NCBI GenBank assembly: GCA_003255025.1
Contig: QANY01009110.1
Location: forward strand, 992,001 to 1,056,000
DNA: 64,000 nucleotides
Reading direction: 5' to 3'
Source: Datisca glomerata
Taxonomy: Eukaryota; Streptophyta; Magnoliopsida; Cucurbitales; Datiscaceae
The position numbers and the translations under genes were made by a program. Below the pieces are notes generated by a model. That model saw only the letters and a program-made list of their open reading frames with translations. It had not been told where the DNA came from and made no database searches. Of the stretch, positions 20,126 to 20,610 are shown piece after piece. Within the stretch, counting starts at the first letter, position 1. Every line of letters begins with the position of its first letter.

Positions 20126-20610
20126 TTATTAAGGATTCTACTACATGTCTATGACTCTTTTAAAATCCGTCAGGCATGATGAAGAAAGTTCCTTATGGAA
20201 TAAAAAATTCTTCTATTGTTTTATTTGGAAATTCAATTTTAAATATTGCTTGTCCCAAAAGGTTTACGGTTAAAATTTTACTGTTATCATAACATATTTC
20301 ATTATCTTTGTGAAAACCTATTTTTCCACCTTTTTCATACCACTGAATTAATGTTGTATTGAAGTTATCCTTCAATCCAACATCTTCTAAAAGTCCATCC
20401 AATTCATTAATCCAGCCATTTCTTGGATATTCAAATCTATTATGACCATACTTAATAAATGGAGATTTTGAACAGAAGGAGGTTGTTCTGTCATTAAATT
20501 TCTTGATTCTAAAAGAATTTTGATTGAGTATTCTAGGTTCTACCTTTCCATATTCTAGTTGGTCAGAATTCTCAAGTTCCTCCATTGTTGAATCTTGGAA
20601 TGATTCCCTG
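20126..20610 (-). pseudogene. AlkB-like 2OG-Fe(II) oxygenase domain in viral copy C
   Basis: A 130-codon open stretch (20585-20193) reads on minus through FEYPRNGWINEL, NTTLIQWYEKGGKIGFHKDN (HxD at 20312-20304) and ILTVNLLGQAIFKIEF. After one stop it continues with IMPDGF and SHRHVVES (distal His pair, 20153-20145). Order and spacing match viral AlkB domains: aromatic/Gly block, HxD, TVNL strand, GF..HxH. The final Arg-bearing strand is missing; sequence jumps into the ORF2 start. Known AlkB enzymes remove methyl groups from DNA or RNA by oxidation using iron and 2-oxoglutarate. In RNA plant viruses the domain is thought to protect the genome. Here it sits at the C-terminal end of a pararetroviral polyprotein. 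Confidence 0.8.

What the first reader, a model, noticed from the sequence alone, without database searches (positions are those of the whole stretch)
20126..20610. AlkB-like demethylase domain inside an endogenous plant pararetrovirus
Seen: copy C carries, in the polyprotein after RT and directly before ORF2, a 130-codon stretch with HKD (20312-20304), a TVNL strand and a GF..SHRHVV segment. Known: this motif series defines AlkB 2OG-Fe(II) oxygenases, which occur in many plus-strand RNA plant viruses and repair methylated RNA. Inference: a caulimovirid lineage acquired the domain, perhaps from an RNA virus or the host. I am not aware of a described reverse-transcribing virus with AlkB, but could not search.
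Basis: partly seen in the sequence, partly recalled or inferred. Interest (0 to 1): 0.9.

Follow-up and report, generated by a model that had tools for sequence, protein, structure and literature searches.

The report
RNA-demethylase domain in split plant pararetrovirus
A genome, likely a plant's, holds at least 150 fossil copies of a DNA-virus form that carries an AlkB-like domain, predicted to strip methyl groups from RNA, while its own copying enzyme has decayed, and near some of them lies a sister form that has the copying enzyme but no AlkB, so the two likely worked as partners.

Summary
The AlkB-like stretch is real: HKD lies exactly at 20312-20304, and Pfam 2OG-FeII_Oxy_2 matches (E=4.7e-6, below cut-off in this broken copy; 40.4 bits, cut-off 31.2, in a stop-free copy elsewhere). 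It is no single insertion: at least 150 copies lie on 123 contigs of the same genome. In 48 copies read, a protease lies upstream in 43 and ORF2 downstream in 47. The ~0.86 kb between protease and AlkB is not a reverse transcriptase (RT) but a remnant of one, with matching losses in 46 of 50 copies. Copy A, in the same window, has RT and RNase H and no AlkB. Of at least 150 A-type loci, 10 were read; none has AlkB after RNase H. Of 15 further RT-remnant loci, 14 carry AlkB. The two forms lie within 10 kb 16 times (0.66 expected if uniform). AlkB shows constraint (dN/dS 0.33; 0.48 in a sample chosen against it) below the RT remnant (0.69), but in that sample the ranges overlap. This fits an RT-less partner genome, a known kind, that carries a demethylase, which I found in no paper. 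That the enzyme cleans viral RNA, for both partners, is inferred. Its origin is open.

The parts
20130..20585 (-). AlkB-like 2OG-Fe(II) oxygenase domain of copy C; HKD at 20312-20304; open for 130 codons, two in-frame stops in the last part
   Evidence: Pfam PF13532 E=4.7e-6; alignment to relatives; read directly
20586..21440 (-). decayed reverse-transcriptase remnant of copy C between protease and AlkB
   Evidence: no Pfam match in the two pieces scanned; DNA match to parts of the RT region of copy A at 70-78%
21465..21695 (-). aspartic protease of copy C
   Evidence: PF00077 E=6.8e-5, 23.5 bits over cut-off 20.7
22652..22861 (-). coat-protein piece of copy C
   Evidence: PF22909 E=0.001, below cut-off
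24781..25293 (-). probable movement-protein piece of copy C
   Evidence: PF01107 E=7.8e-4, 19.5 bits below cut-off 23
19027..20039 (-). ORF2 domain of copy C, directly after AlkB
   Evidence: tblastn with the L010 ORF2 stretch, 71-75%
18100..18120 (-). tRNA-Met-type primer binding site at the junction of copies C and B
   Evidence: begins TGGTATCAGAGCCA on the minus strand; same first 14 letters as the site quoted for a caulimovirid in PMC13308828
18121..25632 (-). copy C: AlkB form (RT-decayed); ends approximate
   Evidence: self-comparison of the window
10798..18120 (-). copy B: second AlkB form, head-to-tail with copy C; ends approximate
   Evidence: self-comparison; tblastn
12532..13024 (-). 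AlkB-like domain of copy B, diverged (45-54%) and broken by a frame change and stops
   Evidence: tblastn
3393..10797 (+). copy A: RT form without AlkB, tail to tail with copy B; ends approximate
   Evidence: self-comparison; movement-coat-protease side 88-89% identical to copy C, intergenic end 10397-10797 89%
7631..8020 (+). reverse transcriptase of copy A with YIDD
   Evidence: PF00078 E=6.4e-15 on 7823-8020; 7631-7819 gave no match on its own
8024..8655 (+). RT end and RNase H of copy A
   Evidence: PF17919 E=6.8e-5 and PF00078 E=3.6e-4 (8024-8524), PF17917 E=0.0037 (8497-8655), all below cut-off
8735..9813 (+). linker and ORF2 domain of copy A, following RNase H with no AlkB between
   Evidence: frames read; tblastn ORF2 48% at 9016-9813

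Best explanation
The stretch is an AlkB-type 2-oxoglutarate/Fe(II) oxygenase domain, predicted to be an RNA demethylase, built into the polyprotein of an endogenous caulimovirid form whose reverse transcriptase has decayed; that form likely replicated with the RT of a sister form that lacks AlkB, and would have supplied in return an enzyme that cleans methyl groups off viral RNA. Shown here: the domain, its fixed place between the RNase H remnant and ORF2 in the copies read, its presence in the RT-decayed form and absence from the RT-form loci read, shared RT losses, a degree of selective constraint on AlkB, and neighbourhood of both forms more often than uniform placement gives. Inferred: that the RT came in trans; that the protease frees an AlkB-ORF2 product; that the substrate is the pregenomic RNA. 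The substrate step is suggested by what viral AlkB proteins and the orchid Ty3/Gypsy AlkB do in vitro; methyl groups such as m1A and m3C stop reverse transcriptases (recalled), and m6A readers send a plant virus's RNA to decay (PMC11784248, passages).
For: Profile match above cut-off in stop-free copies L010 and L016; HxD, H and RxxxxxR read in L010, the five residues together in 26 of 47 decayed copies that cover them. At least 150 copies on 123 contigs. In 48 read copies: protease upstream in 43, coat in 35, ORF2 downstream in 47; AlkB-to-ORF2 gap 72 nt in 29 of 47. In L010 and L016 coat, protease, AlkB and the start of ORF2 lie in one frame, in L009 protease, AlkB and ORF2, each with one or more stops on the way. 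RT remnant: 46 of 50 copies match parts of copy A's RT region, none matches 7450-7650 or 8200-8550. A-type: at least 150 loci; of 10 read, 10 have the RNase H end followed by the linker or ORF2 and none has AlkB, while the same profile found AlkB in 20 of 20 control loci, 4 of them in the profile. 14 of 15 remnant loci absent from the AlkB lists carry AlkB. dN/dS in the 48: coat 0.23 (0.15-0.33), protease 0.27 (0.19-0.37), AlkB 0.33 (0.26-0.43), ORF2 0.49 (0.40-0.58), RT remnant 0.69 (0.55-0.89). A and B forms within 10 kb: 16 pairs, 0.66 expected. Copies A and C are 88-89% identical over the movement-coat-protease side and 89% over 402 nt of the intergenic region.
Against: No activity, expression or episomal virus was shown. 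The 48 loci were picked by AlkB protein score, which lowers AlkB's dN/dS. In the 14 loci picked by the RT remnant and absent from the AlkB lists, a sample biased the other way, AlkB gives 0.48 (0.34-0.72), a range that overlaps the remnant's; the diverged L037-L056 give 0.43 (0.34-0.59). Pairs are not independent and stops are left out. The RT remnant has fewer stops per codon (71 of 7742) than protease (54 of 4111) and ORF2 (185 of 13878), so it was perhaps not free of constraint. The proximity expectation assumes uniform placement; clustering of repeats would raise it. Copy A vs C intergenic identity (89%) is just under the >90% used by Geering et al. No fold was obtained (pLDDT 36). Only one relative, at E=3e-3, was found in the protein collection (similar lengths only), none in the PDB.
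Confidence: 0.57

Rival explanations
1. The AlkB form was a one-sided parasite: a defective genome that borrowed RT from the RT form and used AlkB only for its own RNA, giving nothing back.
For: Copy A keeps coat, zinc-knuckle, protease, RT, RNase H and ORF2 parts, so its form may not have needed the AlkB form. Chen et al. 2017 (PMC5491270, abstract and one results section read) describe possible commensal pairs.
Against: A freed enzyme could serve both; nothing measured here separates the two.
Confidence: 0.25
2. The domain is kept for a non-enzymatic reason, for example as a structural extension of the polyprotein, or is only weakly constrained.
For: Only 26 of 47 copies keep all five catalytic residues together; dN/dS rises to 0.48 in the sample not picked by AlkB.
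Against: Each of the five residues is kept in 39 to 42 of the 47 or 48 copies that cover it, although the copies decay; dN/dS is below that of the RT remnant in both samples.
Confidence: 0.13
3. Host ALKBH gene pieces were inserted into, or lie beside, one integrated copy.
For: The host has its own ALKBH genes.
Against: At least 150 copies, in the 48 read at the same place in the element; the five host exons compared share at most about 34% over 41 residues.
Confidence: 0.01
4. The copies multiplied as a host-borne repeat (segmental duplication or a hijacked retroelement) rather than by viral replication.
For: Flanks of the copies were not compared; very high copy number; no intact virus seen.
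Against: 48 read copies lie on 45 contigs, nearest-neighbour differences are 3-22%, coat and protease are constrained, some copies are mosaics with breakpoints near AlkB, and head-to-tail and mixed A/B groups occur.
Confidence: 0.12

Closest known systems
Bipartite florendovirus genomes, component B (Geering et al. 2014, PMC4241990; section 7 and search passages read)
   Same: Coat and protease kept, RT and N-terminal part of RNase H missing, ORF2 homologue as C-terminal extension of the polyprotein, compound insertions with an RT-bearing component.
   Different: An AlkB domain sits between the RNase H remnant and ORF2; part of the RT is still recognisable; the RT form here keeps coat and protease parts, whereas their V. 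vinifera component A is truncated at that end. The words AlkB, oxygenase and demethylase do not occur in the paper's main text.
Non-autonomous rice pararetroviruses eRTBVL2/ePVCVL (Chen et al. 2017, PMC5491270; abstract and one results section read)
   Same: RT/RNase H missing, several fossils, sharing of intergenic sequence with a partner.
   Different: The domain in its place there (SFKTE) is of unknown function; here it is an AlkB-type oxygenase.
Orchid Ty3/Gypsy elements with m6A demethylase (Alvarado-Marchena et al. 2022, PMC9289625; abstract, outline and passages read)
   Same: A reverse-transcribing element of plants with an AlkB domain; demethylase activity shown in vitro by the authors.
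   Different: LTR retrotransposon of 25 kb, separate ORF, nested in plant ALKBH5 homologues; here a caulimovirid, in the polyprotein, distant from the five host exons compared.
AlkB domains of plant plus-strand RNA viruses (Bratlie and Drablos 2005, PMC544882, passages; review PMC11784248, section with Table 2 read)
   Same: HxD, H and RxxxxxR motif; embedded in a viral polyprotein.
   Different: Table 2 lists Alpha- and Betaflexiviridae, Closteroviridae, Potyviridae and one picorna-like virus, no caulimovirid. Sequence relation to them not tested.

Membership tests
AlkB / 2OG-Fe(II) oxygenase superfamily | Profile match above the curated cut-off | tested here: met
   L010 PF13532 40.4 bits (cut-off 31.2), PF03171 33.7 (23); L016 35.9 and 39.0. 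The window copy itself 27.4, below.
AlkB / 2OG-Fe(II) oxygenase superfamily | HxD, H and RxxxxxR residues (definition from PMC544882) | tested here: met
   Read in L010; all five in 26 of 47 decayed copies covering them. Which of two neighbouring histidines is the ligand rests on the alignment with P0002. In window copy C the two arginines are not reached.
AlkB / 2OG-Fe(II) oxygenase superfamily | Double-stranded beta-helix fold | tested here: inconclusive
   Model of the 130-residue window piece failed, pLDDT 36.
AlkB / 2OG-Fe(II) oxygenase superfamily | Demethylase activity | not testable with these tools
   None.
Caulimoviridae | Caulimovirid coat domain and zinc knuckle | tested here: met
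   PF22909 E=5.1e-12 and PF00098 E=4.1e-5 in L010; PF22909 E=2.9e-13 in L016; both in L013.
Caulimoviridae | Aspartic protease, RT and RNase H | tested here: met
   Protease PF00077 in copy C and L016; RT above and RNase H below cut-off in copy A. In the AlkB form RT is only a remnant.
Caulimoviridae | Movement protein of the 30K type | tested here: inconclusive
   PF01107 E=7.8e-4 below cut-off in copy C; no match in two copy A pieces, though that side is 89% identical to copy C.
Caulimoviridae | tRNA-Met primer binding site | tested here: met
   18120-18100 minus strand (compare).
Florendovirus (genus) | Position in an RT tree | not tested
   No reference RT sequences were at hand.
Bipartite component B | RT and N-terminal RNase H missing, ORF2 homologue fused C-terminally | tested here: met
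   That this ORF2 is homologous to the florendovirus ORF2 was not tested.
Bipartite component B | Intergenic region >90% and MP >87% identical to the partner; compound insertions | tested here: inconclusive
   One pair tested, copies A and C: intergenic 89% over 402 nt, movement side 89%. Compound insertions: 16 pairs within 10 kb.
Bipartite component A | RT form truncated in coat/movement part | tested here: not met
   Copy A, the one RT copy read upstream of RT, keeps coat, zinc-knuckle and protease parts.

The most novel reading that the evidence does not exclude
A pararetrovirus that divided its labour between two genomes: one carries the reverse transcriptase, the other has given it up and carries an RNA demethylase, which keeps the RNA templates of both readable for the shared RT. 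It would be the first pararetrovirus known with its own epitranscriptomic eraser, and the first case of RT and RNA-cleaning enzyme kept on separate partner genomes.
Probability: 0.33. Interest if true: 0.92.

Novelty: new variant of a known kind. Interest (0 to 1): 0.8.

Why it matters
AlkB domains in plant RNA viruses have long been read as an answer to RNA methylation by the host. A gain in a reverse-transcribing DNA virus, kept through the spread of at least 150 copies, suggests that methylation of viral RNA is also a pressure on pararetroviruses; a review passage that I read calls m6A in plant DNA viruses unknown (PMC8869485). It also gives RT-less partner genomes, known as fossils, a plausible reason to have been kept.

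Tried and rejected
Chance resemblance: rejected by profile scores in stop-free copies and the copy number. Host insertion into one copy: rejected. RT and AlkB in one element: looked for as AlkB within 2 kb of RNase H in the two lists of 150; none. AlkB-less RT-decayed form: 15 loci absent from the AlkB lists were read, chosen by eye among the 150 remnant hits; 14 have AlkB, 13 of them in split frames; the exception (L088, 54% remnant) is deleted through AlkB into ORF2. Picking bias in dN/dS: tested on those 14; AlkB 0.48 (0.34-0.72), weaker than in the 48. Relatives elsewhere: protein collection with one copy, with 20 copies, and with a longer open frame scored on its AlkB part: one weak relative, P0002. 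PDB by sequence: none. Viral contigs: none. NCBIfam: only sub-threshold alkb, for L010. Fold prediction failed, so no fold search was made. Origin tree not attempted for lack of viral AlkB references. Host species not identified; a check for plant light-harvesting genes (PF00504) did not complete. Rfam: nothing in the window.

Full report
What is in the window. Three element copies lie together: A at about 3393-10797 (+), B at about 18120-10798 (-) and C at about 25632-18121 (-), B and C head-to-tail, A and B tail to tail. The minus strand of copy C has an open 130-codon frame at 20585-20193 with HKD at 20312-20304. Pfam PF13532 matches it with E=4.7e-6, below the curated cut-off. The match to relatives runs on to about 20130 through two in-frame stops; SHRHVV lies beyond the first. 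Copy B has a diverged, broken AlkB at 13024-12532.

It is a family, not a single copy. The 130-residue stretch found at least 150 loci in the window's own genome of 678 Mb (150 scored of 2960 candidates, 67-100% identity), on 123 contigs. I fetched 48 of them with flanks (L009-L056), on 45 contigs. A coat piece lies upstream in 35 of 48, a protease in 43 of 48, ORF2 downstream in 47 of 48; the protease-to-AlkB gap has a median of 863 nt (41 of 43 at 382-970; L015 and L026, at 1236 and 1613, are rearranged), and the AlkB-to-ORF2 gap is 72 nt in 29 of 47. In L010 and L016 the domain passes the Pfam cut-offs (40.4 and 35.9 bits against 31.2), with caulimovirid coat domain in both, zinc knuckle in L010 and protease in L016. 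L010 reads GFHKDNE ... SHRHAVESLTERINITFR: HxD, H and RxxxxxR, the AlkB motif as given in PMC544882. Of the 48, 47 cover all five residues and 26 keep them all. In L010 and L016 coat, protease, AlkB and the start of ORF2 lie in one frame, in L009 protease, AlkB and ORF2, each with one or more stops on the way.

The AlkB form has lost its RT. No RT or RNase H profile matches in the pieces scanned between protease and AlkB of copy C, L010 and L016. In 46 of 50 copies examined (48 loci plus copies B and C; L021, L025, L026 and L048 gave none) parts of this gap match copy A's RT region at 65-85%, within 7097-7443 and 7652-8183 and, in 12 copies, 8584-8753; no copy matches 7450-7650 or 8200-8550. 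Shared losses suggest that they came before the copies spread. Geering et al. describe component B in similar words: RT and N-terminal RNase H missing, ORF2 homologue as extension.

The RT form lacks AlkB. Copy A has RT with YIDD (PF00078 E=6.4e-15) and RNase H (PF17919 E=6.8e-5, below cut-off), and goes from RNase H into the linker before ORF2. Its RT/RNase H stretch found at least 150 loci (150 scored of 5614 candidates). I read 1.2 kb after it in 10 of these 150: the RNase H end in 10, the same linker in 9, ORF2 in 8 within the stretch (linker or ORF2 in 10), AlkB in none. The most permissive profile search gave at best 8.1 bits (E=0.0036, L069) there, and found AlkB in 20 of 20 control loci, 4 of which are in the profile. 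In the two lists of 150 no AlkB lies within 2 kb of an RNase H hit. Conversely, I read 15 remnant loci that seemed to lack AlkB in the lists; 14 have it, 13 in split frames; one is deleted.

The forms belong together. Copies A and C are 89% and 88% identical over 1395 and 2494 nt of the movement-coat-protease side and 89% over 402 nt of the intergenic region, but only 68% in ORF2. Among the two lists of 150, 16 pairs lie within 10 kb, 0.66 expected for uniform placement (clustering of repeats would raise the expectation). L018, L019, L024 and L026 join an upstream part of one lineage to AlkB of another, with identity to the common lineage jumping from 0.70-0.75 to 0.95-0.96 at or before AlkB. 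Such exchange suggests template switching while both replicated (inference).

AlkB was under some selection. Pooled pairwise dN/dS over the 48 loci, with 95% bootstrap over loci and codons: coat 0.23 (0.15-0.33), protease 0.27 (0.19-0.37), AlkB 0.33 (0.26-0.43), ORF2 0.49 (0.40-0.58), RT remnant 0.69 (0.55-0.89). The ratio of first-and-second to third position differences, stops included, is 0.46, 0.53, 0.60, 0.72 and 0.96 in the same order. AlkB has the fewest stops per codon, 30 in 7806, but the remnant (71 in 7742) has fewer than protease (54 in 4111) and ORF2 (185 in 13878). These loci were picked by AlkB score, which favours AlkB. The 14 loci picked by the remnant and missed by the AlkB search, biased the other way, give AlkB 0.48 (0.34-0.72), position ratio 0.75, 15 stops in 2279 codons. 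So constraint is likely, its strength lies between the two, and the range of the second sample overlaps the remnant's.

Origin. The host's own ALKBH exons were found with PF13532. Against six reference pieces (five host exons and P0002) the profile of 20 viral copies scores 35.3 bits with P0002, 8.4 and 5.8 with the two exons of the host gene at C906, and below zero with the other three. P0002 is a 198-residue protein of unknown organism; hhalign gives 95.6% probability and 34% identity over 92 columns. The donor is open.

Literature. Searches for AlkB with Caulimoviridae (8 papers), endogenous pararetrovirus (4), caulimovirid plus AlkB domain (2), endogenous viral element plus plant (3), reverse-transcribing virus (5), 2OG-Fe with pararetrovirus (2) and endogenous caulimovirid with demethylase (1) listed no caulimovirid with AlkB by title or abstract start; of these papers I opened PMC9289625, PMC2714080 and PMC12846519 for passages, the others were seen as listings only. 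The terms AlkB, oxygenase and demethylase do not occur in the main texts of PMC13308828, PMC4241990, PMC5766536, PMC10377300 and PMC9719215. The library holds open-licence papers only. The nearest precedent is the orchid Ty3/Gypsy AlkB with activity shown in vitro (PMC9289625).

How it likely works. The AlkB form would make one polyprotein; the protease likely frees an AlkB or AlkB-ORF2 product; RT and RNase H would come from the RT form in the same cell; the enzyme would remove methyl groups from pregenomic RNA, so that RT can pass or plant m6A readers do not mark it for decay. The first clause rests on the common frame in three copies; the others are inferred.

Noticed in passing
L018, L019, L024, L026: Mosaic copies: upstream part of one lineage joined to AlkB of another; the jump lies at the start of AlkB in L018/L019, inside the RT remnant in L024 and L026.
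   Followed up: partly
window 17904-18185: A 135-base stretch containing the primer-binding-site region is duplicated in tandem at the junction of copies B and C.
   Followed up: no
window 42270-43110: Tandem repeats of 86-87 bases in a G+C-richer stretch (about 44% in 42001-44000).
   Followed up: no
window 52479-54234 and 58507-60345: A direct repeat of about 1.8 kb, 78-85% identical, not identified.
   Followed up: no
window 39822-40350 and 45153-45683: A direct repeat of about 0.53 kb, 82% identical, not identified.
   Followed up: no
G000:C906:665518-666029, C760:39539-40307, C888:1078358-1079162, C385:761957-762256: The host's own ALKBH-type gene exons, useful as the host reference for an AlkB tree.
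   Followed up: partly
L088 (G000:C857:351800-352605): The one of 15 RT-remnant loci read without AlkB; a deletion runs into ORF2, and its remnant is the most diverged in the list (54%).
   Followed up: partly
L037-L056 compared with L009-L036: The protease-to-AlkB gap is 906-970 nt in 11 of the more diverged copies, against 805-889 nt in most of the closer ones, as if the RT remnant shrank; other diverged copies are shorter.
   Followed up: no
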